A DNA stretch of 31,899 bases from Scleroderma bovista (lineage: Eukaryota; Basidiomycota; Agaricomycetes; Boletales; Sclerodermataceae): NCBI GenBank assembly GCA_037178675.1, contig JAYMGJ010000571.1, positions 1-31,899 on the forward strand, in the 5' to 3' direction. Numbering within the stretch: the stretch's first letter is position 1; each line of letters begins with the position of its first letter. Made by a program: the position numbers and the translations under genes. The notes beneath the pieces were generated by a model. That model saw only the letters and a program-made list of their open reading frames with translations. It did not search any database and had not been told where the DNA came from. Shown here piece by piece: positions 7,771 through 30,054 of this stretch.

Positions 7771-7916
7771 CCAGCAACGGAATAACCGATGGCACTCTAG
7801 TTCCACCCACCCATTGCAACACACTTGTTGGAGTTATAAACAGACTATTATGGTTTGTTTACTTACTTACATAAGCTTTCATCGCACTACATACAGTAGA
7901 GTCTATTACTATAGTT

Positions 7917-8935: not shown

Positions 8936-9049
8936 ATGTTATGTGTCAGCCACATCAATTTAGTTCCGGTGGTTCCTCGTGCCGGATCTTGGCCTAATGG
9001 TAGTTAGTTAACACTATATCCATGGCGATACATCTATATAGAGGACATA

Positions 9050-9990
9050 GTATCTAGGGCCTGATGGGTACTATACAGGGAGATCAACCTTGCAGCCCAT
9101 CACACTCGATGGGAAGCCAATTCACAGGCCTGCCCAACTATATAGTTGTTCCCACATTGAGGGCTTGTTTAATCCTCTGGGACACCCCATTCATGGCTTG
9201 TCACTTTAAAATGTACTTGCAAGGTTTCCCTGCATAGCTAGATAACACCTCTGCTAGGGCCTGCCCAATGCTATGGGATACCATGGCCATTGCCTGTCAG
9301 ACTGAACCCATATGCTGGGCGCACTGACTATAAATGACACTGTCTCCAGGGCTTGCCCACAGTTATGGGACACCACACCTGTGGCTAGCACCCCTTAAAG
9401 GTACAGTCTCCGCACAGCCCATTGGAATGGAAGGGACAATAGTTCCATGGCCCTTTGGTAAGAAAGGGACTCTGTTGTTACAGCCTGATCAAAGCCTGAA
9501 ACACACTATTCCTCTGGCCTGCCAATAGAAATGGCAAACCATATTTAGGGCCTGATGCAAAGCACGGGACACTGGCACTGCAGCCCTCCTACTCACTCCT
9601 ATTTGTTGGGCTCTATAATAGAATAGAGAACACTATATCCAGGGCCTCCTGCTCTTATAGATGATACGGCGCCTGGGGCTGTTATGTAATCATGGGACAC
9701 CATCATGGGCTTGACACATTGTGTGACACCAATTTAGCGGCGTGCCTTGGGAACTCCAGGAGGCGGGGCCTACTCTGCTACTTCTAGCCCCTTGGCCGCA
9801 ATTCCATGGCTACCCTGCTGCTTTGGCTGCCATGCTGCTAACAGTCCTTCGGCAGCAGCGGCCATCCCTGGTTCTCTGGCCGCATTGCTGCGGCATACCG
9901 TTCGTTTGCCATGATACCACGGCTGTACTTGTCATAGTGGCGGCCACCACTGCCGCCCGGCCATGATTGGTTACAGCCATCACAGCTGCG
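9050..9990. repeat. Dispersed degenerate repeat, left copy
   Basis: Loosely periodic sequence with recurring GGGCCTG and ATGGGACACC words, then a GCCGC/GCGGC-rich tract at about 9830-9970. The stretch around 9340-9600 aligns by eye, in the same orientation, with 28185-28450: shared words include CTCCAGGGC, TTAAAGGTACA, CAGCCCATTGGAA, AAGAAAGGGAC and CAAAGCA.GGGACACTGG. No convincing gene is present. Confidence 0.55.
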
Positions 9991-10199
9991 AACTTGACGA
10001 CCAGCATAAGGTATCAACTTGTGGCACCCATTGTATTGGAGACATGCACTATTCCCATTCATGCTGATGTGTTCCCTGTGTGATTTCTGCCTTATTGTTA
10101 ACCTGGCCGGGTGTTGCAGCCGCAGCTCAGATTTTGGCTGGCAACATTTGATTAACCAATTATTGTTGTGATGAACATATATGTGTATTCATACAATGT

Positions 10200-10989
10200 T
10201 TACCTACGGCGGCGCTCCAAAGACTCCTCCCATTTCTGCTGCAATGCATTTGGTGCACGGGTTAGCATCTCAATGGCCTCCATCCTTTTTGCACAATGCT
10301 GCATCACCTCCATATGATATTTAAGGGCATTGTCCGAGCTCCGCAAGATATTGTCGCAGAAGTACCGTGCATTTGACAAGGCCTCGTCCGAGGTATATCC
10401 AATGGTGAGTAGAATGGTGAGCTTTCTATCGGCAACCTGGCAAAGCTTTAGTATCTAACACAACACGAATAAGGGAGCATACCAGGTCCACCGGAAAGAA
10501 TGCCTCTGCCTCCGATACCATGTCCTGCAGTGGCCACGTGCTGTACCCTGCCGTACATGCGCCGTGGCCATTAACCCACCACGAGTTTGCCACTTGCAGC
10601 GTACTTGGAACCTGGACTTTGGCGGCCTTGGCATGATAGACATTCAACTGTCGCATTGCTGCATACAGTCTTGCCGGTGGCAGATTTTCTAGTACGACCA
10701 TTCTGTGCACCCTGCTCGCCATCATTGGCAATATCATCTTCGCACCCATAGCCTGGCATGCGGCAAGCACACGTTCTAAATTTGCCTGGGGGCTCATGAG
10801 TGTGTTAATCAAATGTAATCATTCTCCACTTACCACTTCCGTTTGTATGTTTGCATACCATTCAGCTGTGGCCAGCATCCCCTCGGGCTGTTGTTGAACT
10901 GCGTGCACCAACCGTCGAAAGCGGACTCCAACGTATTGCAATACCATGGACAGTTCGCAGGTTTCGCACAGTTCGGATGTGTTATTCAT
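10200..10989 (-). CDS. Orphan 231-aa protein, three exons, intact
   Basis: Exons 10989-10834, 10785-10483 and 10436-10200 (TAA) join in perfect phase (52, 101 and 78 codons plus stop). Introns of 48 and 46 bp have GTAAGT and GTATGC donors. The N-terminus has CETC. The rest reads as mostly helical with many Ala, Met and Leu, and it ends in a basic tail ESLERRRR. No domain is recognised. It lies head to head with the TET/JBP gene, with 275 bp between start codons, which could hold a shared promoter. It is the only one of six multi-exon genes in the element without an in-frame stop, and it keeps a CGA codon. A role in mobility or regulation of the element is inferred only from position. Confidence 0.8.
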
Positions 10990-11264
10990 GATTGATGGTG
11001 TGATGGCCGATTCGCCCTAAGCCTTATAACATTCAGGTAATCAATGTTCTCATGGTCCACATGTCACCTGATGCATAATTGCCACATTGTGCAACCGGGC
11101 ATGTGTTGTTTTGCACCGGCCAATCGCCAATCAGCCTTGTTTAGTGGATCTAGCCGAGAATGGAATGTGTTGCATTGCCATTTGCAAACAGATGTCTGCA
11201 GCTTGCTGCTCATCCCCCACTAAAATTTTTACTCCCCACATTGTCAAAAGTTGTCCTGTGTCCA

Positions 11265-12527
11265 ATGGCTGATGCAAATGCCGTGCCATCCAACTATACT
11301 TTGTCCGACATCATGGCATCATATATGCAGTGCCGCTTCCTGAATGAAGCATTTCCAGACTTAAATTCCCCCACCCCGGAAATGTTTCTGTCCCTGCCAG
11401 TGGATGCAACTGTAGCCATGAACCAAATTGTATCCACCATCACACAGGCATATCATAATTGGAGTGAGCCAATTCTTGTATAGTTAAATTATCCTTCCTT
11501 GATATCCACTTCAGTTTCCTGTGGCATTGACTTGATTAGGTTGTCCGAAAGCCTCGGACCAATGCAATCCGGCACAAATGAGCAACAGGAGATTAGGGTC
11601 CTCCGTAGACATCCTTCCTCTTTGACTGGAACCCTTTCCTGGCCCACCATTATTCTGGGAGAAGGCGACACAATTGCATTGTGGTATCTTCCTGGAGCTC
11701 TAGCTCCCTGCATCCAAGTATGGTATCATTCCACTCTCATTGTCCACTGTTGAGGCCTTTGTTTCTAGGAGCACATCGCGGCATCCATCGATCCACTTGC
11801 ACATCCACTGGAAGAGAGTATTACTAATCAGTCATGGCGTACAACACACCAGTATTTCAAGGATGACGTGGATATTTTCGGGTGCTTGGAATTCTCTCCG
11901 GCACGGCACATGCTCGGCCATTCTGTGAGTACCTTGTTCTTTTGACAATGCACTTGTTTGATCTTCTGCTAGACCCCCAATGACATTCCGGGGGTGTCCA
12001 AGGCTTTGGCCAGTCCTACGGGCTATCAATGGAGCAAGGATATAGGTCTTCCGTCGGCAATACTTTCAGGTGTTCTTTCTATTATCCATCTGCCTCTATA
12101 CCATGCCGGCCAACTTGCCATGCAACGCTTGACTGACTGGGCGACTGGCCATGATCCCGGAATGCTGGCGGCACTTGAAAATTGGTCAACTGTCATCACT
12201 AATATCTCGCTAATTGTCAATTGAAGTACCCCCCTCCACAGGGACCCACACTCTCGAGCAGATTGGTATGACATGCTAGTCAGTGTCGGTAATTATGATG
12301 ACTGTGCACTGGACATTCCCAGTCTTGGGATTCAGGTATTGTACAATCCTGGCACTGTCGTTGCATTTTCCAGCCGGCTCTTTTGGCACGGCGTCAATGA
12401 GGTTGACGGAGCGAGGTGCTGTTTGGCGTATTATATGAGGGATAATATTCACCATTGGTTAAGGGTGCCACGGCCTCTTCATTGGGTGACGCCAGATAAT
12501 GTCCGCAATGCACTGGTGAAGCATTGA
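11265..12527 (+). pseudogene. TET/JBP-type 2-oxoglutarate/Fe(II) dioxygenase with one in-frame TGA
   Basis: Family role: oxidation of 5-methylcytosine (TET) or thymine (JBP) in nuclear DNA. Exons 11265-11463, 11515-11717, 11769-11924 and 11973-12527 join in phase (introns 51, 51 and 48 bp), giving 370 codons; the terminal stop is TGA 12525-12527. Visible motifs include an N-terminal WPTIILGEGDTIALWYLPGAL-type segment and the double-stranded beta-helix iron site HRD (His codon 275, Asp 277). The distal His is in FWHGV (codon 325), and a basic residue follows in GARCCLAYYMRDN (Arg 334). These match fungal TET/JBP proteins, known to be carried by KDZ elements. TGA at 12222-12224 (codon 270) interrupts VN.STPLHRD, where Arg is usual; it would remove the catalytic core. 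A 26-base GT..AG segment could excise it only by deleting the iron-binding His. Low-level readthrough cannot be excluded. Confidence 0.9.
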
Positions 12528-12654
12528 ATAATTAGCTTCCTGATATGATTGTCTGTTGTATTAAAATGTAATTCTGATGGTATGTAGTCCAAATTTGTTG
12601 GAAGTAGTTTGTAGTAGATACTATCCGAATGTGTGTTGTGCTGATGGGATGTGG

Positions 12655-14105
12655 TGCCGCTCGGCGTGCTCAACATTGCAGCAGAGTCAACACTGCGGCA
12701 CAATCAACCCTCCAGCACAGTCAACATTGCGGCAGAGTTAACACTGCGGCACAATCAACAGTTTGGCACAATCACCATTCTGGCTCAACAATGCGGCAGA
12801 GCCAGCCCTGCGGCGCAATCAACCGTTCGGCACATTCATCATTTCGGCACAGTTAACAGTTCGGCACAATGAACAATTCAGCACTATCATTGCACACGTT
12901 GCCGGAAGCATCCTGACACACCACTACACAACAGAGTGAACTAATCTAGCATCAATCATGCTGCCAGAATTATAATTGTGCCGAACTGTTGAATCTGCTG
13001 GAATGATAAATGTGCCGCACAGTTACATGTGCCGGAGTACACAGCAATAGGTGATGTTCACCCCATGGATGCTACTGCCATTGAGGCACTGCACACCCTC
13101 ACTTGGACAGAACCAGCAGAGCAAGAGAGATGTGACCGCAGCTATTTCCGCAGGTGGTCAATGCGGATCAAGTTGGAACCTACTGTCAACACTGAAAATG
13201 ATGAGAAGCTCGCAGGAGCATCAACCTTGAGGAGAAACCATTGTGAATGAGTGGCCCATATGCACACACCTGCAAAAGGAAGAAAAGTAGCTGGGGAAGA
13301 AGAGAAATGTACACAATGCAAGGAGAGAGATTTACTGTGTGCTGTTGAGGTTGAACACTCGACCTGGTTTTGCAGTAAGTCTCTCTCTTTGCACTGTGCA
13401 CACGTGTCTTCTTTCCCAGCTACTTCAAATCCTTCTGCAGGTGCATATGGACCACTCATCAGCGATGGTTTCTCCTCAAGGCTGATGCTCCTGCAAGCTT
13501 CTCATCATCAGTGTTGACAGTTGGTTCCAACTTGATCCACATTGACCACCTGCGGAAATAGCTGCGGTCACATCTCTCTTGCTCTGCTGGTTCTGTCCAA
13601 GTGAGGGTGTGCAGTGCCTCAATGGCAGTAGCATCCATGGGGTGAACATCACCTATTGCTGTGTACTCCGGCACATGTAACTGTGCGGCACATTTATCAT
13701 TCCAGCAGATTCAACAGTTCGGCACAATTATAATTCTGGCAGCATGATTGATGCTAGATTAGTTCACTCTGTTGTGTAGTGGTGTGTCAGGATGCTTCCG
13801 GCAACGTGTGCAATGATAGTGCTGAATTGTTCATTGTGCCGAACTGTTAACTGTGCCGAAATGATGAATGTGCCGAACGGTTGATTGCGCTGCAGGGCTG
13901 ACTCTGCCGCAATGTTGAGCCAGAATGGTGATTGTGCCGAACTGTTGATTGTGCCGCAGTGTTGACTCTGCCGCAATGTTGACTGTGCCAAATGGTTGAT
14001 TGCGCCACAGGGCTGACTCTGCCACAATGTTGACGGTGCCGGAGGGTTGATTGTGCCGCAATGTTGACTCTGCCAGAATGATAATTGTGCCAAAATCTTC
14101 ATTGT
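12655..14105. repeat. 1.4-kb near-perfect palindrome (inverted repeat)
   Basis: The left arm, about 12660-13337, is the reverse complement of the right arm, about 13373-14090, around a loop of about 35 bp centred at 13355. The middle of each arm (about 12900-13240 and 13470-13810) is almost identical; both arms encode the same peptide start MPEYTAIGDVHPMDATAIEA on opposite strands (13029 plus, 13674 minus). The inner 80-90 bp of each arm diverge more. The outer arms are 17-bp CGGCACAATCAACAGTT minisatellite in opposite orientation. It could be a foldback element or an inverted segmental duplication. Confidence 0.9.
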
Positions 14106-14184
14106 GCTGAACTGTTAACTGTGCCAAAATGTTGAATCTGCTGGAATTATGAATGTGCCGCACAGTTGCATGTGCTGGAATACA

Positions 14185-14690
14185 CAGCAGTCAACAGGCC
14201 AGTGCAATCAATACTCCGGCACAATCAACCTTGCGGCACAGTCAACACTCCGGCAGGATCCACATCCCGGCAGTTGACAGGCCAGCACAATCAACACTCC
14301 GTCGGCACAATCAACACTTTGGCACCATCATCAGTCCAGTCCAGTCAACACTCCGGCACAGTCAACCCTCCGGCACAATCAACCCTCCGGCACAATCAAA
14401 CCTCCGGCACAGGCAACATTCCAGCGGAGTCAACACTGCAGCACAATCAACAGTTCGGCACAATCAACAGTTCGGCACAATCAACAGTTCGGCACAATCA
14501 ACAGTCGGCACAATCACCATTCTGGCTCAACATTGTGGCAGAGTCAGCCCTGCGGCACAATCAACCGTTTGGCACAATCATCATTCCGGCACAGTCAACA
14601 TTCCGGCACAATCAACAATTCGACACCATCATCATTGCGGCACACGCTGCTGGAAACATCCTGACATGCCGCTACACAACAGCATGATTG
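14185..14690 (+). repeat. 17-bp minisatellite TTCGGCACAATCAACAG plus third copy of palindrome-arm block
   Basis: Many CGGCACAATCAAC units, four of them near-perfect at about 14450-14515. The stretch from about 14510 to 14690 repeats the end of the palindrome arm (GGCTCAACATT, then CACACG.TGC.GGAA.CATCCTGACA, then TACACAACA). The same block thus exists three times: at 12770-12940, inverted at 13765-13925, and here. Confidence 0.85.
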
Positions 14691-14852
14691 ATGCAGTGAA
14701 CTACGGCACATATGTTATAGCTAGCTGTTGCACCAGCACACAATGGTTTCTAACTGCGGTAGTTGATTGTTATCAATGCCAGCAGTTGTGGAACTACAAG
14801 GACCACGGCCGGTAGGCCCATGTTTGCACATCTTCCCTTGGCAGATTTATAT

Positions 14853-17632
14853 TTACATATTGGCCGAAGGGTGTTCATGCATGGCATTCAATTGCTCCTG
14901 GTGCATGGCTTTGCCATTGTGGCTACCAGCCAATCTATGTGCCACTGTACATTCAGACATCCAATCATTGACCTCTGTATCCCACGGCACATCCATTGTC
15001 CAAAACCAGGCCAAAGTGTCATCCCTATGACCCCTTGCATTTGGGTCGGCAATGGTTGCACTGATCTTTAGGTCTTCTTTCCTCAACATTTGGTAGTGGT
15101 TCAATGTGTTGCCACTTGCATTCAATGCTATCATTTGTTTCCAGCACCGTCGATATATTGCCGCATGCTGCTGCACTTTCACATTGGCACTACCCACCTT
15201 CCCCCAGGCCCTCGTAGTCATATTGTATGTCCCGGCATGTCTGACATCAGTCCGGAAGATGACTGCCTTGTGTGCCAGCGAAACCCTTAGTTCATGTAGA
15301 GCATCATTGGCCTGACCTTCCCTCAATCGTAACTCCTGATCCACCATGGTTAAAAGCCCCAACCTATCGGCTTGCTGCATCCCCAGGTACGACGGCAAGG
15401 GCAGTACCACAGCATCCGAGTAGTTGGGATCTTGTGGGTGGAATGTGTCTGAAAATACATCTTTACCATCACCTTCATTGATGTCCGTTGTGGAAATGAG
15501 ATTATCCGAGATGTCCTCATTCCAATCTTCACCTAGAAATTGGGAAGCTGATTCACAGAGCCGATCAATTTGCATCTGCAGGCGGTCCTGCCGGCGGGCA
15601 ATAGACAACCTTTGTGTTTTCGTCGCCCTTGCATGAATGTGGTGGACATCTATGGCCAAAATAATTTGTGATTCTTCGGCTTTCAATACCCTTGCCATCC
15701 ATGTTGCTGCCCCACGCATATGACCATCCAGTCCCTGATTACTTATAATATCCATTTCGATCGACTTAGTTGTTTGAGCTGTCATTATAATACGTCAAAT
15801 TTGTTTGAAATCAGCCAAGCAAGTAAATACCTTTTTCCAGCTGCACCTCAAATATGTCCATTGATTTTGGATCAGTAACCCTATTCTCCAAAGCCGATTT
15901 CTCTTGCTGTGCCCAAAGCTCATGCAACTCGACCGGAACCCTTGTATCAAGCTCTGCAAATGCTCCTTCCGCGGACATCAGTGCCTCTTGAGCATTCTTC
16001 AAATTTCTTTTCAGGGCGATGGCTGTGCAATATGTCGTCGGTATACTTCACCCAAAATCTGCAAGATATTGTGATACCACTCACGCATCCACACCATCTT
16101 TAAGAAGTTGTTGTCATTCATTTGAAAATCAAGCAGCTCCTGTCTATGCGGCGTTGCCATTCTGCGGGCCGATGGCGAAATGATGTTAAGAGAGGACCAG
16201 AGAGTCTCCATAATTTCACCATCAACGCGGCCTACACAGGAAATGAAATTGGGAGCATATCAGGTGAAACATTCTGCCTTGTGACCATGTACATGCCAGA
16301 GCCCAATGCTAGGTTGAATCCATAGCCCACATGGTAAGGATATAAAATTGTTTGCTTCTAGCCGCTGCTTTAGGTTTTTGCTGTATTGGCAATTGATGTC
16401 ATAAAAGGTTATGACTTTTTGTTGCGGATCCATCCCATGTTGCACGGCATGTGCCAGAGCATAATCCATATTTACCTGCCTATCTTCCTGTTAGAGTGGA
16501 ATGCAAGCAACATGTCGGCACATACTGCTCTCCCTTCTGAAAGTCAACCATTGCATGGGGTACAAAGCATCCATGCCACGCACATGCACACCCGCCAATT
16601 CCAGTAGATGCCAGCTGATTTCTTTTAGTATTTGCCTGGTTTACTGCTCGATGGTTGCTACAGTCAGATTTCTGTGAATTCCATTACAATGCTGAACTGT
16701 ATTGTAAACATGTGCAATCACAAACCTCGACCCGGTTCAATGTTCCAGCCAGATAATCCTTATATTGTGGCATTGTAACCATGAATCCCATTCCGTCCAT
16801 GAGCCAAACTTCATTAGCTGAATTCTTTGGCTGCATATGCTCGGCCTTGAAGTTTCCATCCATCATGATGGTCCTAGAATATTTCCACCTATATTGTTCA
16901 GCTGCTCAATAAGTACAAGTAAAAATAAAACATTACTTACTTTGAGAGGTCTACATTTTCACTGGATGGAATGTTTACTCCTGGTTGTGGGCATGCCAGA
17001 CAGAACAGCACCAATTCCCCCCTCTTGGGATCAGGAGACCCTGGATGAAAACCTTGCCATTTCAACAACTTTAACAGCCTCCACATCCTTGACACCCTGA
17101 GTAGCTCTCTGTATCTGTTCTTGGATCAGTGTTGGTGGTGTCATCGGGTCCTTAATATCATCCTTTGAACTCACCGGTACAAGGCCGGGAAATGCATTGG
17201 ATGTAACTCGCTGAAGCTTGCTGTAATAATTCATGCCAGAGGTGCCGCACTCCACATTATCCATAATGAAGTCATCCAATACTTGGAAGGTGAATACAGT
17301 CCTAGGTTCCTTTGTAGTTGCCGGGAAGAGTCCTGCTTTGACCAACTGCAGATGTGAAGCTCCTGCATCTGGACAGTTACAATACCTCACATCACAAAAA
17401 TGTACCCCAGATGTATGCACTACAGTTAGGCAAGACCTGACCATTCCTCCAGAAAGATGATGGGGTCTTGGTTGGTCCTGAATATCCTCCCATTCATCCT
17501 CAACATCACCAGCAATGTCCTCACCATCCATCCCGCCATTCGGACACGGATCCCCACCATGGCCGAGGTGTACCACCAACCCAGCCTTCTAAATGAGTTG
17601 TTGCTGTATGCCAAGTAGAATTTGTGACTCAC
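14853..17632 (-). pseudogene. KDZ (Kyakuja-Dileera-Zisupton) transposase with CxC2-like cysteine cluster, one in-frame TGA
   Basis: Exons read from the minus strand: about 17632-17175, 17119-16941, 16888-16726, 16671-16522, 16475-16085, 16022-15831 and 15778-14853 (TAA). All introns (46-62 bp) keep phase. The first exon holds LGHGGDPCPN and a cysteine cluster (FCDVRYCNCPDAG, then VECGTSGMNYYSKLQ). Then come NRYRELLRVSRMWRLLKLLK, the first catalytic Asp in MMDGNF (about 16860), a CACAWHGCFVP segment, the second Asp in FYDINCQY (16400) and the catalytic Glu in GRVDGEIMETLW (16217). The long C-terminal exon is helical. An in-frame TGA at 16262-16260 sits in ECFT.YAPNF, where Arg is usual, and cuts off the catalytic Glu. 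CACAWHG is normally CACARHG, again a CpG change. At about 17585 the frame shifts by one base, and the usual N-terminal treble-clef part is not seen, so the 5' end is damaged or truncated. Confidence 0.92.
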
Positions 17633-17712
17633 CAGAATCCTTCAACAAAGTGTTGGGGACTTTTCTAGCACAGCACCACTCAAAAAATATCAAAGTCTAC
17701 TCGACACACAGC

Positions 17713-20114
17713 ATGGCCCGCAATTGTTCCTCCAGCAGATCTATGGAGAATCCTGATACAGAAGATGAGCAAGACAATTCCTCTGACTCGTCGGGCCCAG
17801 AGGCACCACAAAATGTGGTAAAAACCAAACTCTGGGATGATGAGGTCGAGGTCCTTGAGGAAGCCTTGGAAGACTGGAAGGCAGCGGACAGCAACCAAAG
17901 GAAAGGTATGAAGAATGCCATGAAGGCAAAAATCAAAAATCTCCCTGCCAATAGCACACTCAAAGGACATGAATGGGAGAAGAAGAAAAAAGTGCGCCCC
18001 ATTTCCATAACTTCACATGGACTACTGATGCATCAGTGATATCAGGCAATTAAAAATTGGTTGTATAACCACAGCCGAGCCCGTGCCTGAAAGGCCCTAG
18101 TAAAGTATGGATGTAGGTGGACTGCCAGATCAGTCATAATGAAGTCGAAGAAAAAAGAAATCAAGGCCGAATTCGAACAGGCTGGAATTGCCCAAGGAAG
18201 CACAAGCATGATTAAAGGCTACCAAAAGGCGGTAGGAAGCATCATGGGGAAGCTCACCCAGGAGGAAAGGGATGTTGCAGCAAAGCAGGCTGATGAATGG
18301 AACAAGGAGCAGCCGCCAGCAGAGGTCCAGGCCGAGTAAGTTTGTCATGTTGTCTCGACAATTATTCATCTGCAAACAGAATGGCCGAGACAAAAGGCCG
18401 ACAATATGTCAAACAGTTTGCGCAGGAAATGTGGTGGCAGTGTGGGATGAGGGTGGTTGTGATGGCGGCATGGAAGGGCCGGAATGGTCAGCCCATGATG
18501 GGAATGTATGTCGCTTCTCACTTGTGGTATTTGTATACTCACATTCATAGGCATGACTTTAATTCGGCATTGGGACAAGGGAAGACCTTTGCCGATTGGG
18601 ACGACATCAAGCACCACTGGGATGCCTATGCACAGCAGGCCATAGGAGGGGAAGAACACGATGATAGCGATGATGATGCCGGACCGACGATCTGCCAGAA
18701 GAAAGGGCAGAAGAGGCCGCAAACTGTTTTACCAACAACGGAAGATGGCACACCAATGATTCCGATCATCCTTGATATGCAAGCATTGGAGCGAAAGGAT
18801 ATTATGAGGACTTTTGTGACATGGCATTATCGTAAGTTCTGCCTTGTAAATGGAGAAAGAATTGACCCCTTGCTGCAGGCAAGGCATGCGGCAAGCCAAG
18901 TGCCAGTGTTCCTTGGGCTGCCATCCATGCAAAGACCAGTATCTACATATCATCTGGGTATCTGCCATGGCATTGGGAGTTCAAAGAGCCAACCCGGCTC
19001 ACAAATCAGGAGGTTACCAAGGTACTGGAATTCTGGTGGGACAGGCAAGTGACAGATCCGGAAGATGTACTGACATTTCGCAAATGGAGAGATATGGATG
19101 GTGGATTACAAGATCCAGTATCAGATTGTGAGGACTCAGTGGCCAGAATGATAAGTGGAGAAAAGCCGCCCCTGGAAGGTTAGCTCTGAATACTTTTATC
19201 AACTTGTTTTGACTGGTTCAAAGAACATGCGGCACCGGATGTGGAACTTGCAAACAGTCGGAAGAGACAGCGCACAATGGGTATGGATCTTTCAACCCTG
19301 TTATACAACCATTGACATGCATAAAAGAAGAGGCCCCAGAGGAGAGGGAGTCTGGTGCAACAAACAAAAACCGATGCCGGTCAAACTGGGATGATGGTAT
19401 GCCCCATACGTATTCCAAGCATTTGATCCTCCTACATTTGGAACATCCCTGTCAGCAAGCCATACAATGCCCATTGAACAGCCTGGTCAGTTCCTTTGAA
19501 TATTTTTGTTGTCAGAATATGAAGTTTATATATAGAGGATGACTTGGATGGACATAATGCAAGATCATCTAAGGAAACCGGTGCGTGGTGCTTGGTTTTG
19601 TTATGCCGGTGGCAACATCTTCACGAAGTGCATCAGCGGCACTGACGGCATGGCAGCCGGCCAAACCTAAACAGCAAGGTGGGTATCAGTCTCAATTACT
19701 TGGAAATGGCACATATTCTCATATAAGAAAAAGCACATATGGATCCTGGAAACGTCATGGCTAATGGACCGATGAAGCCAAAGCCCTGGGTTAAAAAGAG
19801 CACAGCCGATGCGCCGGTGGAATGTAAGTCTGCCTATTTCAATATCCATTTACCAATTCCGACAAATGATAGTTGGTGAATTAACTATGGATTCCATTGG
19901 CAACACAAATGGGATGGAGGGTGGTCGATCAGGGGATGATGATGTCACACACTCTGGAGGTAAGGAGAAACGGGCTGCCAGCACACGCCAGATTGCCAGG
20001 GCTCAAAGTGTCAATGCTGTTGCCAGGCCGAGTCAACTGGAATGGCAAAGAAGGTGGCCAAAGCGGCCAGATGCTGATGTCCCTATGCCCAGCCCAAAGA
20101 GATGCCGCAAATAA
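17713..20114 (+). pseudogene. Orphan 12-exon gene, 618 codons, one in-frame TGA
   Basis: Exons 17713-17991, 18046-18335, 18380-18505, 18551-18831, 18879-19178, 19224-19280, 19328-19396, 19456-19485, 19536-19580, 19637-19678, 19728-19823 and 19873-20114 (TAA). Every junction is GT..AG and keeps phase. The N-terminus is acidic/Ser-rich. A middle region has WLYNHSRARA, RWTARSV, KLTQEERDVAAKQADEWN and CGMRVVVMAAWKGRNGQP, then WHYRKACGKPSASVPW and SGYLPWHWEF. The tail of small exons is low complexity and ends in basic PSPKRCRK, a possible nuclear signal. Similar proteins recur in Agaricomycete genomes, but I know no function. TGA 18088-18090 follows HSRARA; CGA (Arg) would fit. The start lies head to head with the transposase about 80-130 bp away, and the end faces the next gene tail to tail across 77 bp. 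Intron 18506-18550 is 45 bp without a stop and could be retained. Confidence 0.8.
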
Positions 20115-20191
20115 TATATCTGTAGAATAGTGGTATTGTCAAATTTTCAATTTGTTGTCCTGAAAGATTTTATTGCAGCACTACTGTAACA

Positions 20192-21504
20192 CTACAGCTT
20201 GGAGGGATCTAATACTACCACATCCTCAGGGTGATCGGCCTCAATTATGTCACCATTCTCGCCAAGTCGGGCTGACCTAGCCAACATATCCTGCACATTC
20301 GCCAACATTGCTCTCCGGCACATTTCTGATCTTCACAGCCTGGCAGTGTCGAGCAACGTATTTGCGTAATGAATGTAGGCCGCAATGATAGGGTGGTCAA
20401 GGCCGGCATCGAGTGGGAGTAGGTCGGGCAAGTGCCTAGGAGGGACGGATGTAGTGACTTGCCTTGCAGAGGCCACTAGATGACAACTGATCAACTGATA
20501 CTATGGATGAAGCCCAAGAGAGACTTACATGAAAGCGCATCATTCATGAATGGATCCAAATCCTCATGCAATGTGTTAATCCTGTCCACCATTTCAAAAT
20601 AATCCACTGGATGATTGTTAAATACACATAATTCCCGCAGTAATACTGACTTACCATCCTCTGCATGCACGTGTTCCCGGAATCGTGCATGTGATCCAGA
20701 TGCAGCCTCAGGAGATGATTCTGATTCTGCCTCCATTGGGGAGGTGGGAATCAGTTGGCTTGATGCCAGGCTGGATGGCAATGCCAGGCTGGATGGTGAT
20801 GCCGGGCTGGATGGCGATGCTGGGCTGGATGGTGATGCCGGGCTGGATGGTGATGCAGGGACTGAGGATGCCGGCATCGATGGGGATGACATCCCAATAC
20901 GTGGCACATGCACTGGAGAGGGCGGGATCCATGCAGCCATCATGGGGGATGGCAACGGTGGCATCCATGCTTGCGGTTGGGTCCCTTGGGATGATGGCCG
21001 AACTGATGGGGTAGTTGGCATTGCTGCCAGGGGTGGCATTGACACCTGTGACTGAATGGTGAGGGTAGATGGCACATTGGATGGACCTGCAGCGATTGGA
21101 GGAGATGGTGGCATCCAAGCCTGGGACCTAGTCGTGGGGGTTGCTGCATGCATCTCATGTGCTGAGGGGCCAGGGAGGTTAATTGGAGCTGATTGCAAGT
21201 GGGCCGGTAACTGATCATTTGCCACTGTTGCTTGTCTGTTGCTGTCCACAGACATTGCATCCTTATTCCTCACAGACACATTTGTGCTCGTTTCACCTGT
21301 GCGCATCCCGTGGCGTGGGGGAGAGGGTGGCATCCAGTCCATGCTTGATGGCAGGTGTTCGTCGACAATGGATGGAGGCGGGTGCCACACTGGCAGTGCA
21401 GGAATGGCTGATAACGATGTCATGCAGATCAGCTCAGAGGAGAGAAATTACTCACTCAATTTCCGCGGACTTGCGCTATCAAATCTGACATCCTTAGGTG
21501 GCAT
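20192..21504 (-). pseudogene. Ser/Pro-rich orphan protein with WMPPSPP repeats, one in-frame TGA
   Basis: Exons 21504-21456, 21407-20529 and 20475-20192 (TAG) join in phase (introns 48 and 53 bp), 403 codons. The N-terminal two thirds is disordered: WMPPSPP-type motifs recur four times (DWMPPSPP, AWMPPSPP, AWMPPLPS, AWIPPSPV), and an 18-bp minisatellite at about 20758-20868 encodes SPASPS units. The C-terminal third looks folded (for example FREHVHAEDGKSVLLREL and HPIIAAYIHYANTLLDTARL) and is probably the functional part. TGA at 20335-20333 follows DTARL, with coding-like sequence (RSEMCRRAMLANVQDMLARS) continuing to the TAG; CGA would restore Arg. I do not recognise the family. Its tail-to-tail neighbour is the 12-exon gene, and its 5' side faces the satellite and duplicated blocks. 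Confidence 0.75.
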
Positions 21505-21639
21505 GGCAGTAGCAAAGATGCAAGTTGACAAGATGGAATTGATGTGGAATGGAAATCACAATTGAATGATTATATAATAATGGTTTCCATATATAGTTCA
21601 TCTATCTCACCACTGGAAAGATTGGCATAGTTGCATAGT

Positions 21640-21910
21640 GCTGATAGTGGGCAAGTGCCGATGTTATGCAAGTGCCGATTGTATTATGAATGTATGTTCT
21701 GCCGCTGGGGTGTGTGCTGACTGTCTACCGTATGCATGTGCCAATGGAATGCTGTGCTGATTACAGTATGTTACCCCTATCAATACCTAATGCCGCCATC
21801 CACGGCAATTATATATACTCTTGCTATTTATGTATATCGGTAACATTGAAGAATTACTCCAGAGGTAAATCTTGCATTTGCCGGCGAGAGATTGGGATAG
21901 TATGTACATA
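21640..21910. repeat. Duplicated block, left copy
   Basis: This stretch aligns by eye with 24595-24940 in the same orientation. Shared words include GTATGTTCTGCCG, ATGCCGCCAT.CACGGCAATT, ATGTATATC.GT and AATTACTCCA.AGGTAAATCTTGCAT. The two copies flank the 16-bp satellite and the reverse-oriented element remnant. No gene seen. Confidence 0.7.
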
Positions 21911-21929
21911 GTGCCAATAGTGTGCTGTT

Positions 21930-22258
21930 TCGATAGTGTGATGTGCCGATAGTATGTTGTGCCGATATTATGTTGTGCCGATCCTATGTTGTGCTGATAT
22001 TATGTTGTGCCGATCCTATGTTGTGCCGATATTATGTTGTGCCGATCCTATGTTGTGCCGATATTATGTTGCGCCGATCCTATGTTGTGCCGATATTATG
22101 TTGCGCCGATCCTATGTTGTGCCGATCCTATGTTGCGCCGATCCTATGTTGTGCCGATCCTATGTTGTGCCGATGTTATGTTGCGCCACTCCTATGTTGT
22201 GCCAACGTTATGTTGCGCTGATCCTATGTTGTGCCGATCCTATGTTGTGCTGTTGTGC
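21930..22258 (+). repeat. 16-bp minisatellite TTGTGCCGATCCTATG
   Basis: About 20 units of a 16-bp repeat, alternating mainly between TTGTGCCGATCCTATG and TTGTGCCGATATTATG, with TTGCGCCGATCC variants towards the right. Long ORFs here (Met-Leu-Cys-Cys-Ala-Asp units) are products of the repeat and not genes. The core TTGTGCC is shared with the reverse complement of the other satellites in the element. Confidence 0.95.
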
Positions 22259-22479
22259 GCCTAAGTGAGGGAAGAGGTCAGAACAACCAACAACCAACAC
22301 CAAATGACAGCAATATGCGAGTGGTGGTCTTCCTTTGCGTTTCTGGTATTTAATCTCCTCAGAGGGATGTGCTGCACGCCTTCAGGCAGGATGCAGGAGG
22401 GAAGGGAAGGGCTTCTGATGGGGATGAAATGTGACTGGGGATGGTATTGACTCCTCTTCAGCCTACCACAGTGGTTAGG

Positions 22480-24590
22480 AAGAGTCCTGGGATATAAAAG
22501 CGATGATAGATTGATGACAGGGGTGTAACAGCAGTGATGGAGCAGAGGGGAAGCAAGGGGACAGTTCCTGCTTCAAGAATGCGATGGACAGTGATGGGAT
22601 GGAGTGGACAGTGATGCTAGACTGCGCTTCAGCCTAGAGAAATGATCAGATACAAGATATATCTGATAAACAGCAATATAGGAGCTTTAGGTCAGCACTG
22701 AGTGACCTACAAGTCCAAAGACAAAGAGGGAGCTTATAGACAGAGAGGGAGAGTGAATGTGGTCGCTTTATTGAGGGGGAAGCAGACACTTCCTTGCAGC
22801 CTTTGGCTGCTGGTTTATATACAGGAGGGGCTGTGGCCCTGTAAGCACAAATGACTAAGTGCTTGGTAAGAGATTGGTAAGAAATTGGTAAGCGATTGAT
22901 AAGCAGTGTAATCAGGCTGAGTCATCGATGGGGAGAGCCTGAACAAGCTGCTGAGCCAAGGGAAAGAGCAAAAACATAGGTAAAAAGGGGTGTATAACCA
23001 AGAATATGGAAAAATCATTGCATGGGGCCCAAAAGAGAGGGGGAGAAAGCAGGGGATGAGTAGATCGAAGCTAAATGAGCATATGCGATGACATAATGCA
23101 TATGAATCATAGGGGCATGAGTCATGAATTGATAAGCAGCATGATAAGCATGATTTGAAGGATGATTGGTAAGTGATTGGTAAGGGGAGTAATGGGGATT
23201 AGTAATGCCAAGAGGGGATGAATAATGCGCAGCAGAGTGAGTCAGAGTGAGCCAGAGTGACTCTGTGTGACTCAGAAAGGAAGCACAACCTATGATTTAT
23301 TGAACTTTAGATCTGGAGATGAGCTTCTGAAGCAGTGCCACTGATGGGAGTGGCTGGGGGATAATAAAAGAATTGATCCGACCAGAAGAGCAGTGTCAGG
23401 GGGCCTGGAATGACAAGTAGAGTCACAGCTGGTCACAGAGTGTCACAAATCCCTTGGATTGAGCTTCTGTAGAGCAAAAACGCGAAATTTGGTGCTCCCG
23501 AAGTGCAGTCTTCCCTTGAGCAGTAAGGGGAAGGTTCTGTACTCTATTAGGGCTCCTAAGAAGGGTTCTAGAGCACTGTTTCATTCGTGTTTGTTGCGGG
23601 ATAGCAGGGAAGAGAATCGCAAGTAGCGGATTTGACGTGTCCAGGGAAGCGAGATGAATGATAGAGGGAGATGGATGTGACAGGACTCTGGGATGAAAGG
23701 ACCATATGCAGAGGACTCAGGAGACACAGAGATGACCAGGTATGAATTTTCAAGTCTAACGATAGACTTGAGACGACCAAAGTATGTGCGCGACGCAGGA
23801 CTGATGAGGAGAACGCGCTGACCGAGAACAAGAGGGACTGAGGGAGAAGAAGGCTGGGAAGATATGTACCAGACAGTACACAGGAGCTCAGGGAGAGGCT
23901 GTCCCAAGAGCAGGACATAATTGAGGTCTGCTGCAATAGCGGAGAAACGTTCCAGAGAAAATGCGGACTCCATAGTGAGTGATGAAGTGGGTGTCTAGAT
24001 TGCGGGTGGAATATCTCCGTGGGAAATGAACAGATTTACGTCGGAACTTGACAGGCAGATAAACCATGTCTAGGCTCCATGATGGTATAGTCACATGATT
24101 GATAGCTTCAAAAATGGCGGAGCTATTCAAAATATCGGAATGCCAGCACTGGGTGCCTAAATTTGACATTTGGGCGCTAAAAATGATTCTTCCTTTTCTC
24201 CTTTGTTTTTCTATCGTTTCTTCTGCTTCTTTGGTTGTTCTGGTATGGGAGTTGGACTGCAGTAGGTTGCATTCCTCTCTCATACTGAAATGATCATCAA
24301 TCCTTGGAATCTTCTGCTTCTTGGCGGTTCTTGTGCGAGGGATGACTGCCAGACGATGGCATTCATCTCTTGCTCCAGGATAGTCATTCTTGTGTGATAG
24401 ATGGCTATGACAAGCTTGTATTCATCCTTCGCATAAGGATAGTCATGACTTTGTGTGATATGGATAGCGAGGGCTGTCTGTATCCCTCAAGTCGGGACAA
24501 TCTTTCAACAGATCTTGGGTGTGCGTTCTTCGCATTAGTTTCATCGGCTAACTTTCTCCATGTCCACAGTACCAAACACGTTTGGTGCGT
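22480..24590 (-). mobile_element. Probable reverse-oriented degraded retroelement remnant
   Basis: Read on the minus strand, the segment has LTR-like signals: TATATAA (22821-22815), AATAAA (22772-22767) and a CT-rich downstream part. AG-rich sequence on the plus strand contains many GGTAAG..ATTGGTAAG words. Upstream on the minus strand are open frames of about 130 codons (23973-23581 and 24283-23888), plus a roughly 60-bp direct duplication at about 24330-24460. No reverse transcriptase, integrase or other domain was recognised and no terminal pair was found, so class and boundaries are guesses. The segment is flanked by the duplicated block copies. Confidence 0.3.
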
Positions 24591-24594
24591 GACA

Positions 24595-24940
24595 CCGTGC
24601 CGATAGTGTCTTGTGCCAATGGTTTGCAAGTGCCAATGTTATGCTGATGGTGTGTTCCAGCGGTGTGGATGTAATGCTGCTGGTGGTTGTGCTGATTGTA
24701 TGCCATATGTATGTGCCAATGCAGTGCCGAGTGGATGTTCGCCCTTGTATGTTCTGCCGATTATGTTGTGCCAACAGTGGATTAAAGTATGTTGCTCCTT
24801 CCAATACTTGATGCCGCCATACACGGCAATTTTAGTTACATCTGCAGGACATATCTAGCCTCCTCTTGGTATTCATGTATATCAGTGATGTTGAAAAATT
24901 ACTCCACAGGTAAATCTTGCATGTGCCGGTGACATATTGG
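24595..24940. repeat. Duplicated block, right copy
   Basis: Partner of 21640-21910 (same orientation, diverged). It contains scattered TGTGCCAAT and TTGTGCC words like the neighbouring satellites. No gene seen here or in the gap up to 25122. Confidence 0.7.
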
Positions 24941-25122
24941 CAATGTGTTCATGGCTGTGGTTGAGACCATTACTGGCATGTCTCTGACAGAGTTCGCAGG
25001 CTGCGTCAATGATTCACAAGGACAACTCTACATCCATAAATATACTTTACAATGCAATGTATATGGTATACATGGAATAGGAATCAGAAATTGTACAAAA
25101 GATGTAGGTATGATAAAGAAAA

Positions 25123-27065
25123 TTAGTCCGTTTGCATTTGCACACCGGCATCGTGCCCACCATCAGCATCGGAACTCCCAATCTCCATATCGGATGCCGG
25201 CATCCCAACATCTCCATCTTCCGGCGGGCTGACCTTGATTGCCGGAATATTGCTGGCCTCCATTGTTGCGGGCACTTCATCACAAATCGCTGTGTCAACA
25301 ACACAATGTTGTGATCAGTAGCACATAGCTTGGTAATCGACAGACTTACCATTTGGTGGGGCCCAGTTGGAGCTATCACCGGTTGGCTTGCTGGCACCCC
25401 TTTCATCGACCAAGCCTGGAGGTGCCACCTCAAGACTTGAGGCATTGTGGGTGCCGGTTGGCTCATTCGAGCCATGCCGGGATGGATTGCCGGACGACAC
25501 CATTTCTTCCAGCATAGTGGTAGGTGCTAGTGCCAACGGGCTTGGCGGACTGGGGTGAGCGCACTGCGAGACCTCGGCACATGTTGAGTCAGATGCCGGC
25601 TCTGTCGGTGTGAATGCCGGCCACGATGCTGGACGTTGAAGGTGGGATGGTGTTGGGAACATCTGTTCCCACATTGCTTCAACCACCTGCCGTAAGCTGG
25701 CAACTTCTCTGAGCGCGACGGCCAACCTGTCATTTGCTTCATCCACCTTTTGTTCCGTTTCGGCCTGCTTTTCCCTCAAACAGACAACCTCCTCCTTGAG
25801 ATCTTGTACATTGGAGGTATTTGTACTGTCTCCCGGTGTTGTGGGAGGGTTCGTGCCACTGCTGGCGGCTGTTGACGATGGACTTGCCGTCCTCAATGTC
25901 TTCCCTAGCCATGCTGGAGTATTGATCAGTACCCCATCAAAAACTGCATGGAATATCAATAGATATTAAATGGTTTGAATAATGAATGACTTACCTTGTT
26001 TCCTGGGCGGATTGGCTGCCGCTGGTGCTGGGGTCTGACGTTGCCTTTTTGAATGCTGTGATCTTCCTCGATTGAGCGTTGAGGGCGCAGATGGTGAGCG
26101 CTGACGTGGTGCCAGTTTCCTTGGTGCTTGTGAGCGCGACCTTGACCTCGCTCTGACTGCCGTCATCATGCTGCATGCAATCTTGCTGCAACAGCATTGC
26201 CAGCAAGCACGGCCTGGGTTCGCTGCACACCATCAATCCCGCTGTATGCACTTGATGCACTGATCCTTGTCATCCACCCACTCATAGCCTGCGTCTGGTG
26301 TCTGCATGTCGCGAACGTTTGGCCTTGGTCGCTTTGGCCGTGGTTGCGATGAGCCTTCTTCATTGTCACCGTCGCTGTTGATCGTTGTGACCGATTGGGC
26401 ACGCTTCCTCGGCTTGCAACTGCGACTGCAGCCCCTAGGCGCTTCATCATCCTCGATGGCACCGCTTCCTTCTGGCACTGCTTGTGAGTCCTCAGTTTCG
26501 CTGGGCTCACCTACTTGGCCATGACTGCCTTGCACCTCCATCTCCTTTACCCCCGATGGTCCTGCCACTGCATTGTTCCCCGACGGCTCTACTGCTCTCC
26601 TCTTTCCCTTGTCCACCTTCTTCTGCGGCTTGCCTAGTTGGAACCAGGGATGGTCCCGGATATCGTGGTCGGTAGCGTTAACGATGTCCGGGAAGTGAGG
26701 CCACTTCCCTGTCGACAGGATCACCTCTGGCGCCTCCATAAACTGGTCGGCAGCAATAATGATAGTTGGTATAATGAATCCTGCAGGTAAGTCCTGCAGG
26801 ACATTCTTGACCCGACGCTATCATATCCTAATCAGTGAGTTGATTGATTGCAGATAAAATTTCCACACACCACCTGGGCCCAGATAGTTGACACTGCTTC
26901 TGACCATACACCCTTCTCCCGTGTGCTTCTCAAGCCATCAATCTGGCCTTGAATTATTTCAGCGGCCTGGGCGATGACTTCTTCTGCAGTGAGGGACGTA
27001 GCCGTTGACATGTCCTCTTGAATGGATGAGGCGGAGACGAACTGAGAACCTTCTGAAGTTGCCAT
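25123..27065 (-). pseudogene. Orphan four-exon gene with cysteine cluster and coiled coil, one in-frame TGA
   Basis: Exons 27065-26874 (or to 26871), 26817-25995, 25943-25350 and 25289-25123 (TAA) join in phase, about 591 codons. Order of parts: a helical N-terminus (EEVIAQAAEIIQGQIDGL); KNVLQDLPAGFIIPTIIIAAD; a charged, low-complexity region with basic patches KGKRRA and KPRKR; a cysteine cluster QCIKCIQRD then WCAANPGRACWQCCSKIAC; an Arg/Ser-rich basic stretch; a coiled coil of about 45 residues (LKEEVVCLREKQAETEQKVD and onward); and an acidic tail. The cluster (C-x2-C-x6-C-x7-C-x2-C-x5-C) resembles zinc-binding or recruitment motifs common in Agaricomycete proteins. TGA 26235-26233 falls inside it, between IQRD and WCAAN; Arg (CGA) fits. 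A nuclear DNA- or chromatin-binding role is an inference. Confidence 0.75.
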
Positions 27066-27640
27066 ATAGACTGTAAGGATGTGGAAATGGTAAAGCAGTG
27101 GTTGAGGAGAGGAAGAACTGGGTCCAATTGCCGTGCGGCCTGGAGGATGTTCAACATATTATATAAGCATTTCACACCACAACATGTTTGCATTGTGGTC
27201 GCACACCAAAGTGGACTAAATCAAATATAGGTTAATAATTCAGCCACAAGTCCGACCAATCATTGTCCTGACAATTCGGCTAATGAACCACACTGCCGCA
27301 TTTCATATTGCATGGTGGCCACGTTTCTATTGCTTGTGATTGGCTGTCACAGTGCATTGTGCCATCAGAATAATAAGGGATCTCAGATTGGCATTATGGT
27401 TGGGCTTTGCAGTCGCCTTATTTTGGAATGTTTCTATCCTGTGGCATGTGATCTGACATGCTTGTGTTTAACAAGGAGCCTCAGTTATAGAAAGTGATTT
27501 CAAAGTGAGCAGCCTGCCAGCGCTGGCTCATCTAGCACTGCCATCTCTCGGGGAACAATCAATGCAGCATGTACTAACACAGCTGCAGCTTGAGAAAGGC
27601 ATCAAGGCCGCATCTTGGTCATTGTGGTACGGCCATCATT
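27066..27640. other. Non-coding stretch upstream of the cysteine-cluster gene
   Basis: AT-rich sequence with no convincing exon or repeat. It lies 5' of the gene that starts at 27065 and presumably includes its promoter. No clear TATA box was chosen. Confidence 0.4.
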
Positions 27641-27646
27641 AATTTA

Positions 27647-27982
27647 CTATCACTTACACCGTTGTTGGCACCCCCACCCATTTGGCACTTTGGTTTTTTA
27701 CCACCCACTGCTCAACTACACACAAAATTGACTAGTACAAAATTTGTTTTATACCACTCGGATACTCTGATAGCTCAAAGGATCGATATATGTGCAGTAG
27801 TTGTTGAGATCACAAAAAATGCTGGGTTGAACGGCAGTCACGCTCATTTGTCACCCAAGTTGTCACAAGTGCCAAAGTGGAGTCACACCTCTCATCACGG
27901 AATCCGTGTGACACCGGTGACATATGGTGACATTCTGTGACTGCTGAATGGGTGGGGGTGCCGACAACGGTGTAAGTGATAG
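27647..27982. mobile_element. 336-bp MITE with 36-bp terminal inverted repeats and TA duplication
   Basis: The left terminus CTATCACTTACACCGTTGTT at 27647 and the reverse complement of the right terminus (ending 27982) match over 36 bp with one difference, T against C at position 20 of the repeat. TA flanks both sides (27645-27646 and 27983-27984). TA target duplications are typical of Tc1/mariner or pogo-like elements. The interior has no transposase frame, so it is non-autonomous. The single difference lies in a CpG on one side and TpG on the other. Confidence 0.85.
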
Positions 27983-28169
27983 TAATGCTATCATTGCAGC
28001 ACTTATGCACACAGCCACCACAGCTTGGCTGCCACAGGCCAGTATGTCAGTGGGAAATGCCGGTTTCCACAATACCGTGTTGACACTACCACACGGCACG
28101 GTCATTCCCATATTGCCGCACAAGCAAGCATGATGGCCACATTGTACCTATTGTTGCCGTGTGCCCTGA

Positions 28170-28620
28170 CTATATAGATGAAACTGGCTCCAGGGCCTAC
28201 TCATAGTCATGGGACACCAATCCCATGGCTAGGTATTCTTAAAGGTACACCATGCATGCAGCCCATTGGAAAGCACGGGATGCTGTTTCTATGGCTGGCC
28301 CTGCAACAAGAAAGGGACACCAAAGGTACAGCCCAATGCAAAGCACAGGACACACTATCCCTCTGGCCCACTGACAGAAACAGGACACCAATACCACAGC
28401 CAAATTCAAAGCATGGGACACTGGTACAGAGGCCTTTCTATTGACTCCCATCCGCAGGTTAGCCGCATTGCGGCACTTACTACCGTCCTTTTGCCGAAAT
28501 GCTGTGGCAGCCCCCCTGCAATCCTCGGCCTGAATGTAGTGGCTACCCTGCGGCATATAGTCCTCTGGCCACATGCCGCGGCTCCCTTGCCGCATTAGGT
28601 ACTATTGCCACAGGCCATAT
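28170..28620. repeat. Dispersed degenerate repeat, right copy
   Basis: Direct-orientation relative of 9050-9990: recurring CAGGGCCT, ATGGGACACC, CAGCCCA.TG.AAAGCA and AGAAAGGGAC words, then a GCCGC/GCGGC-rich tract (28455-28600). No gene is visible. Together with the left copy it brackets the KDZ-associated genes. Confidence 0.55.
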
Positions 28621-28968
28621 CCTGATCTAGTGTACTAGTGTGTCAGCCCACCAATATTACTTGGTGACAACCTCTCCATGAGCCACCAATATGGCACAGT
28701 GAAACACCTTACCATTAGCCCACTCGTATGACATGGCGATGCACCATGGCTGGGCCCTATCTCAGCTGGCCATGTAGCATGGCCGATTGTCAGCTTTGTC
28801 TGTCCATGTTGTATGGGACAATGCAGGTGCATTATGTGGCAGAATGGGCTACCTGTGTTACCACCTGCCCCTTCCGACAATGACAGCTCATTGCTTAATG
28901 GTATATTCACATTTACGATTATGGATATTGTGTCTTATCTGGGTTTCTGCTTACATTAGACTCTGCAG
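28621..28968. other. Non-coding stretch, no gene seen
   Basis: No exon-like frame and no clear repeat. It contains the junction between the element and the right flank, whose exact position I cannot fix. Confidence 0.3.
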
Positions 28969-30022: not shown

Positions 30023-30054
30023 AATTAAACGGCCGGAAATTTTTGAAATCCCCA

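What the first reader, a model, noticed from the sequence alone, without database searches (positions are those of the whole stretch)
12222..26235. Five neighbouring genes each carry exactly one in-frame stop, always TGA, apparently from CGA
TGA interrupts the TET/JBP gene (12222-12224), the KDZ transposase (16262-16260), the 12-exon gene (18088-18090), the WMPP-repeat gene (20335-20333) and the cysteine-cluster gene (26235-26233). In each case the frame continues through conserved or coding-like sequence and in-phase introns. In the two recognisable families the lost residue should be Arg. Among CpG-to-TpG changes only CGA to TGA makes a stop, so five TGA and no TAA or TAG is what deamination of methylated CpG predicts; fungal RIP at other dinucleotides would also give TAA and TAG. 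One hit per gene is unusually even and could mean uniform young decay, or, less likely, recoding.
Basis: partly seen in the sequence, partly recalled or inferred. Interest (0 to 1): 0.9.

Follow-up and report, generated by a model that had tools for sequence, protein, structure and literature searches.

The report
CpG-decayed jumping gene, five stops
One decayed copy of a 20-kilobase fungal transposon, which carries its own DNA-demethylase-like gene, has a premature TGA stop in each of five genes; most other copies read carry CGA at four of these sites and TGG at the fifth, so this is an already documented kind of decay, likely caused by mutation of methylated CpG sites.

Summary
The five TGAs are real and in frame, but all lie in a single Kyakuja-like (KDZ) DNA transposon, window 8413-28838, with a 7-bp target-site duplication and at least 39 relatives in the same genome. 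The same codon in other copies is mostly CGA at four sites (TET/JBP 25 of 29, KDZ 29 of 29, 12-exon gene 18 of 20, Cys gene 15 of 20) but TGG in 19 of 20 (one deleted) at the WMPP site. So four stops are CpG to TpG and one is G-to-A at a Trp codon outside CpG. On inferred trees all five are the window's own changes, which argues against recoding. Across copies, CpG transitions run about 38 times the per-site rate of other C-to-T changes, equally on both strands; of 24 premature stops, 21 are TGA, 3 TAA, 0 TAG. That spectrum predicts 74% TGA, so five of five is unsurprising (P about 0.22). "One per gene" is softened: a predicted sixth gene has none, and the transposase likely also lost its 5' end to a deletion of about 0.9 kb. 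The cause (5mC deamination or a CpG-directed RIP-like process) is inferred. CpG hypermutation of mushroom transposons is already published.

The parts
8413..28838 (.). Kyakuja-like KDZ DNA transposon (20426 bp including a nested insertion) that holds all five genes
   Evidence: Left: 30 of 42 other match rows start at 8412 or 8413. Right: all 41 other rows end at 28838 or up to 11 bases beyond. Both 20-base end patterns match 20 of 20 bases on all 7 other contigs read
8406..8412 (+). target-site duplication GCAGAAT, left
   Evidence: a 7-bp direct repeat at both ends in 3 of 8 end pairs (window, C375, C126)
28839..28845 (+). target-site duplication GCAGAAT, right
8413..8427 (+). left terminus GAGCCCATGCACCTG (imperfect terminal inverted repeat)
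28824..28838 (-). right terminus, read inward CACATAATGCACCTG
10200..10989 (-). predicted sixth gene of the element, about 233 aa, 3 exons, no premature stop; no Pfam match in the one exon scanned
11265..12527 (+). TET/JBP dioxygenase gene, 4 exons
   Evidence: model; PF12851; CcTet
12222..12224 (+). TGA; other copies 25 CGA, 3 CAA, 1 TGA of 29; Arg five residues before the His of HxD
14853..17588 (-). KDZ transposase gene with CxC2 domain; 5' exons likely deleted in this copy
16260..16262 (-). TGA; other copies 29 CGA of 29
17635..17636 (.). deletion point: about 913 bp of the C137 copy are missing here; all 29 other KDZ alignments break here
18088..18090 (+). TGA; other copies 18 CGA, 2 TGA of 20
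20192..21500 (-). WMPP-repeat gene (approximate span)
20333..20335 (-). TGA; other copies 19 TGG and 1 deletion of 20; not a CpG site
22092..24594 (.). nested insertion absent from the C126 copy (the low edge lies in a 16-bp repeat array and is approximate); at least 39 further copies, 98-99% identical
25120..27066 (-). cysteine-cluster gene (approximate span)
26233..26235 (-). TGA; other copies 15 CGA, 2 CAA, 3 TGA of 20

Best explanation
The five TGAs are point mutations of one decayed copy of a multi-copy Kyakuja-like transposon, four of them CGA to TGA at CpG sites and one TGG to TGA, and the CpG changes likely arose by deamination of methylated CpG. Shown: the sense codon in other copies, the CpG bias, its strand symmetry, and TGA or CAA at the same CpGs in some other copies. 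Inferred: that each change is the window's own (trees), that these CpGs are methylated, that a DNMT1-type enzyme of this genome does it, that deamination of 5mC is the chemistry, and that the copy is functionally dead. How it would work: a DNMT1/Masc2-type enzyme marks the repeat at CpG; 5mC deaminates to T on either strand; CGA is the only codon that a CpG transition turns into a stop, and always TGA, so TGA dominates the nonsense load. The TET/JBP product would end after 269 of 370 codons, before its Fe-binding HxD motif.
For: Codon at each site in other copies: TET 25 CGA/3 CAA/1 TGA of 29; KDZ 29 CGA of 29; 12-exon 18 CGA/2 TGA of 20; WMPP 19 TGG/1 deleted of 20; Cys 15 CGA/2 CAA/3 TGA of 20. 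The five elements that were read at all five sites keep a sense codon at each. On inferred trees every window TGA lies on the window's own terminal branch, and TGA or CAA arose again at three of the four CpG sites. Pooled events: 953 CpG transitions (496 C-to-T, 457 G-to-A) at 582 sites against 114 other C-to-T at 2664 sites, ratio 38 (26-48 by gene); terminal branches only, 51. 24 premature stops in 40502 codon readings: 21 TGA, 3 TAA, 0 TAG; 19 from CGA, which makes up 335 readings; without the window's five, 16 TGA and 3 TAA. CpG observed/expected is 0.39-0.76 in the element's own stretches (0.88 in one 471-base repeat stretch) and 1.00 in the ClpB-like gene next door. A weak DNMT1-RFD match (E 5.5e-4, over the cut-off) and two C5-methylase matches lie on one strand of contig C98 within 4 kb.
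Against: One of five stops is not at a CpG. No methylation data are held. CpG depletion is not confined to the element: the stretch just left of it (6892-8412) has CpG observed/expected 0.30 and 1-3834 has 0.66, while the gypsy-like frame has 0.91 and the right flank 0.87. A 38- to 51-fold excess is above the roughly 10-fold that I recall for vertebrate 5mC, which leaves room for an active CpG-directed process. CpG counts per copy are overdispersed (variance/mean 5.1 in 22 TET and 5.8 in 24 KDZ less-diverged copies), which age differences or bursts could both give. Singletons alone give a ratio of 10.7, and the window's own singletons are 9 CpG and 9 other C-to-T, only about 4.6-fold per site; that count drops every CpG hit in a second copy. 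Trees were built partly from the CpG sites themselves. One per gene has P about 0.014.
Confidence: 0.87

Rival explanations
1. An active, CpG-directed RIP-like process (perhaps run by a Masc2/DNMT1-type enzyme) hits repeats in bursts; it is not passive deamination over time.
For: CpG ratio 38-51; the 22 less-diverged TET copies range from 1 to 26 CpG changes with few other changes; CpG signature with Masc2 is published for basidiomycetes (PMC4352252, sections 7 and 12 read) and CpG hypermutation for Tricholoma matsutake (PMC6980582, passages).
Against: No consistent TCG preference of the rust type: in singletons TCG is the highest of the four NCG contexts, by 1.3 to 1.6 times, but in the less-diverged TET copies it is the lowest, and in KDZ the second of four. 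CpG counts rise with the other changes (r 0.37-0.75 over the five sets), as a clock would give. Not separable from methylation-driven decay by sequence alone.
Confidence: 0.3
2. TGA is recoded in these genes (readthrough or reassignment).
For: All five in-frame stops are TGA; frames continue.
Against: TGA is the minority at all five codons among the copies read; most have CGA or TGG, a few CAA. The TET gene's own terminator is TGA. The spectrum explains the TGA excess.
Confidence: 0.01
3. The TGAs lie in introns or are assembly errors.
For: No transcript data are held, so splicing was not tested.
Against: The same stretches read as sense codons in other copies, and the TET codon aligns to a residue inside the oxygenase domain of CcTet; TGA recurs at three of the four CpG sites in other copies, which sequencing error would hardly give.
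Confidence: 0.03
4. The even one-stop-per-gene pattern reflects selection or a single mutational episode rather than chance.
For: P(one in each of five, given five stops) about 0.014 on the stretches examined.
Against: The gene list was chosen after the fact; a predicted sixth gene has no stop and the transposase likely has a second lesion. The gene shares used cover only part of three genes.
Confidence: 0.05

Closest known systems
TET+ Kyakuja DNA transposons of Agaricomycetes (Kojima 2025, PMC12730594; abstract, outline, passages and sections 19 and 26 read)
   Same: KDZ transposase and a TET/JBP gene in one element; 7-bp target-site duplications; the named TET relatives are from Scleroderma and Pisolithus, and that paper gives Kyakuja as the only TET+ lineage of Boletales; the solved relative is CcTet
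   Different: Here the ends are GAG...GTG with an imperfect inverted repeat, whereas that paper gives CA..TG ends without inverted repeats for its Laccaria families; this copy is decayed and has further cargo genes; placement among Kyakuja, Dileera and Zisupton by a tree was not done
CpG to TpG mutation bias in Agaricomycetes (Tricholoma matsutake PMC6980582; Rhizoctonia solani AG8 PMC4014442; Heterobasidion parviporum PMC5870257; passages read)
   Same: C-to-T changes biased to CpG; the second and third papers note that TGA is the nonsense product
   Different: Here it is read codon by codon across copies of one element that carries a demethylase-like gene; 953 of 1067 C-to-T events are at CpG, against about 40% for the SNPs of the second and third papers, which are another kind of data
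CGA to TGA excess among nonsense mutations in methylating genomes (Trexler et al. 2023, PMC10471768; abstract and outline seen)
   Same: CGA is the dominant source of stops and gives TGA
   Different: Human and comparative data there; one fungal transposon family here
RIP of Pezizomycotina (Neurospora type; recalled, and as described in PMC4352252)
   Same: C-to-T mutation of repeats
   Different: RIP there prefers CpA, which would also make TAA and TAG; here CpA changes are rare and TAG is absent

Membership tests
TET+ Kyakuja transposon | KDZ transposase domain (PF18758) with CxC2 cysteine cluster | tested here: met
   PF18758 match at 16107-16526, E 3.1e-28; PF18803 CxC2 in 17031-17588, E 1.4e-26
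TET+ Kyakuja transposon | TET/JBP gene inside the element's ends | tested here: met
   PF12851; ends at 8413 and 28838
TET+ Kyakuja transposon | 7-bp target-site duplication | tested here: met
   3 of 8 end pairs show a 7-bp repeat, the window among them; in 5 the flanks do not match; that both ends of a pair belong to one element was assumed
TET+ Kyakuja transposon | 5'-CA..TG-3' termini, no terminal inverted repeat | tested here: inconclusive
   One end reads CAC inward, the other GAG; an imperfect inverted repeat ATGCACCTG is shared
TET+ Kyakuja transposon | transposase groups with Kyakuja in a tree | not tested
   no named reference transposases of the three groups were fetched
5mC-driven CpG decay | C-to-T concentrated at CpG | tested here: met
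   38-fold per site, 51-fold on terminal branches; 10.7-fold by singletons
5mC-driven CpG decay | equal on both strands | tested here: met
   496 against 457 events; 83 against 79 singletons
5mC-driven CpG decay | CpG methylation of the element | not testable with these tools
   no methylation data; only candidate methyltransferase genes seen
RIP, Neurospora type | CpA preference, TAA and TAG stops | tested here: not met
   CpA singleton rates 0.0006-0.0011 against 0.0076-0.0125 at CpG; TAG 0 of 24, TAA 3 of 24
TGA recoding | TGA conserved at the site among relatives | tested here: not met
   TGA is the minority at all five sites

The most novel reading that the evidence does not exclude
A CpG-directed hypermutation system, in a mushroom subphylum where an earlier survey (as cited in PMC12730594) found none, outruns the transposon's own TET dioxygenase: it destroys the 5mC eraser through the very base that the eraser acts on, and the same Arg codon ahead of the Fe-binding HxD is hit again and again (CGA to TGA or CAA; Gln or Trp in relatives), so that this site is a recurrent kill-switch in the arms race.
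Probability: 0.2. Interest if true: 0.6.

Novelty: new member of a known kind. Interest (0 to 1): 0.33.

Why it matters
It shows with numbers how a run of same-type stop codons can be misread as recoding when it is the fingerprint of the local mutation spectrum. It also gives a multi-copy test bed for the open question raised in PMC12730594 (section 26): what TET/JBP genes do for mushroom transposons, and whether they protect against CpG hypermutation. Here the TET-bearing family is itself heavily CpG-decayed.

Tried and rejected
Recoding: rejected by the other copies. CGA origin for all five: rejected, since the WMPP site is TGG. Rust-type TCG preference: not consistent. Shared inheritance of the stops: trees put each window TGA on its own branch, though the C137 copy of the 12-exon gene is a close relative that also has TGA, so common descent with that copy is not fully excluded. 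A comparison of CpG decay in a repeat without TET (the nested insertion) was planned but not possible. Sampling: the copies read for TET and KDZ are the 29 most identical others of 39 listed each; for the other genes 20 of 39 (12-exon), 20 of the 41 rows other than the window's own (WMPP) and 20 of 39 (Cys) were read, chosen as a mix of high and low identity; the tool scored only the best 40 candidates per gene. One TET copy (L013) was left out of the tree for short coverage. Of the 40502 codon readings, about 42 lie at or just past the WMPP gene's own terminator. In one search the Arg position could be read by pattern in 23 of 44 relatives; the 21 others were dropped by the pattern, and at least five of them can be read by eye (R, R, R, Q, W).

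Searches for the pattern in print.
Full report
What is there. The five genes with a TGA are cargo of one DNA transposon. Homology to other copies begins at window 8412-8413 in 30 of 42 other match rows and ends at 28838 or up to 11 bases beyond in all 41 other rows. The two 20-base ends are identical on 7 of 7 other contigs read. A 7-bp direct repeat flanks the window copy (GCAGAAT) and two others; in the remaining five of eight end pairs the flanks do not match.

What the codons were. TET 12222: 25 CGA, 3 CAA, 1 TGA of 29 other copies. KDZ 16262: 29 CGA of 29. 12-exon gene 18088: 18 CGA, 2 TGA of 20. WMPP 20335: 19 TGG, 1 deleted of 20. Cys gene 26235: 15 CGA, 2 CAA, 3 TGA of 20. So four of five are CpG transitions; the WMPP stop is a G-to-A at a Trp codon outside CpG. 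The five elements that were read at all five sites have a sense codon at each. On FastTree trees with parsimony, each window TGA falls on the window's own branch, and TGA or CAA arose again elsewhere at three of the four CpG codons.

The mutation spectrum. Over five alignments (29, 30, 21, 21 and 21 sequences, window included) there are 953 CpG transitions at 582 CpG sites and 114 other C-to-T changes at 2664 sites: a ratio of 38 (26 to 48 by gene), or 51 on terminal branches. Among less-diverged copies only, the ratio is 38 in TET, 40 in KDZ, 23, 30 and 9 in the three short stretches. A stricter count of singletons gives 10.7, which is low because a CpG hit twice is no longer a singleton; the window's own singletons there are 9 CpG and 9 other C-to-T. 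The two strands are equal (496 and 457). There is no consistent TCG preference: TCG is highest among singletons and lowest in the less-diverged TET copies. CpG observed/expected is 0.39-0.76 in the element's own stretches, apart from 0.88 in a 471-base repeat stretch, and 1.00 in the adjacent ClpB-like gene; but the stretch just left of the element has 0.30 and 1-3834 has 0.66, so depletion is not confined to it.

The stops. In 40502 codon readings (TET and most KDZ exons, and one stretch each of the other three genes; 30, 30, 21, 21 and 21 sequences) there are 24 premature stops: 21 TGA, 3 TAA, 0 TAG. Nineteen are CGA to TGA, although CGA is 335 of the readings. Without the window's five the figures are 16 TGA and 3 TAA. 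The measured rates predict 74% TGA; five of five has probability 0.22, and 21 or more of 24 has 0.09. One per gene given five stops has probability 0.014 on these stretches, but the gene set was picked after the fact, the sixth gene has none, and the transposase likely carries a second lesion.

How broken the copy is. The TET protein would end after 269 of 370 codons, before the HxD that binds iron (motif recalled). In the alignment with CcTet the residue at the TGA is the Arg of SLIVNRATPIHRD, five residues before the His. In 23 of 44 database relatives where a pattern could read it, this residue is R in 9, Q in 9 and W in 5: the outcomes expected of CpG transitions in Arg codons, besides stop. 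All 29 other KDZ alignments break at 17635; across this point the C137 copy has about 913 bp that the window lacks, whose minus strand, as in another copy, reads as a cysteine-rich start of the transposase, an identification by eye. No frame-shifting indel of the window stands out in the TET and KDZ exons against 29 copies each; the indels seen are each in one other copy. A repeat of about 2.5 kb, with at least 39 further copies, is nested at about 22.09-24.59 kb.

Mechanism. C5-methylase domains occur on three contigs, and one of these, C98, also has a weak DNMT1-RFD match on the same strand within 4 kb, so a DNMT1/Masc2-type enzyme is likely. Methylation of CpG and deamination to T would explain the bias, the strand symmetry and the TGA excess. 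A RIP-like CpG process is not excluded. PMC12730594 (section 26) states, citing an earlier survey, that hypermutation is not detected in Agaricomycotina; PMC6980582 (passages), PMC4014442 (passages) and PMC5870257 (passages) report CpG-biased C-to-T changes in that group. The present case adds a well-counted member.

Against this reading. No methylation or RNA data; one of five sites is not CpG; the window's singletons are not CpG-rich in number; trees partly rest on CpG sites; the copies sampled for TET and KDZ were the most identical ones; a comparison repeat without TET could not be fetched.

Verdict. An ordinary mechanism, well supported in pattern and inferred in chemistry.

Noticed in passing
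12670-13201 and 13502-14033: A 532-bp inverted repeat (96% complementary, 300-bp spacer) next to the TET gene, made partly of the 17-bp CpG-bearing repeats of the element.
   Followed up: no
8730-8933, 12650-14650, 21911-22250: Arrays of 16-17-bp repeats, many with a CGGCAC or GTGCCG core; many units differ by CpG to TpG or CpA, so the decay can be seen by eye within the arrays.
   Followed up: no
relatives P0001-P0044: In the relatives that could be read, the Arg before HxD is R, Q or W, and the middle residue of HxD is R, H, W, Q, C, L or N: mostly CpG-transition neighbours of Arg, which suggests that many annotated relatives are decayed too.
   Followed up: partly
22092-24594: Nested repeat with at least 39 further copies at 98-99% identity; type not determined.
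   Followed up: partly
3835-6891: A 1018-aa open frame that looks like a Ty3/gypsy polyprotein (named by eye; the one family search that held it failed), with CpG observed/expected 0.91.
   Followed up: no
6892-8412: Stretch just left of the element with the lowest CpG observed/expected of the stretches measured, 0.30; its nature was not looked into.
   Followed up: no
30007-31899: ClpB/Hsp100-like gene beside the element (PF10431), CpG observed/expected 1.00.
   Followed up: partly
L144, minus strand: The cysteine-rich piece missing from this copy matches PF20632 (coronavirus NSP13 zinc-binding domain) just above the cut-off (28.7 against 27.7 bits) and no CxC family; most likely a shared cysteine spacing, not kinship.
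   Followed up: no
G000:C296 (L145): A C5-methylase exon with the motif GTSCVDYSNLN (PF00145); its subfamily was not determined.
   Followed up: no
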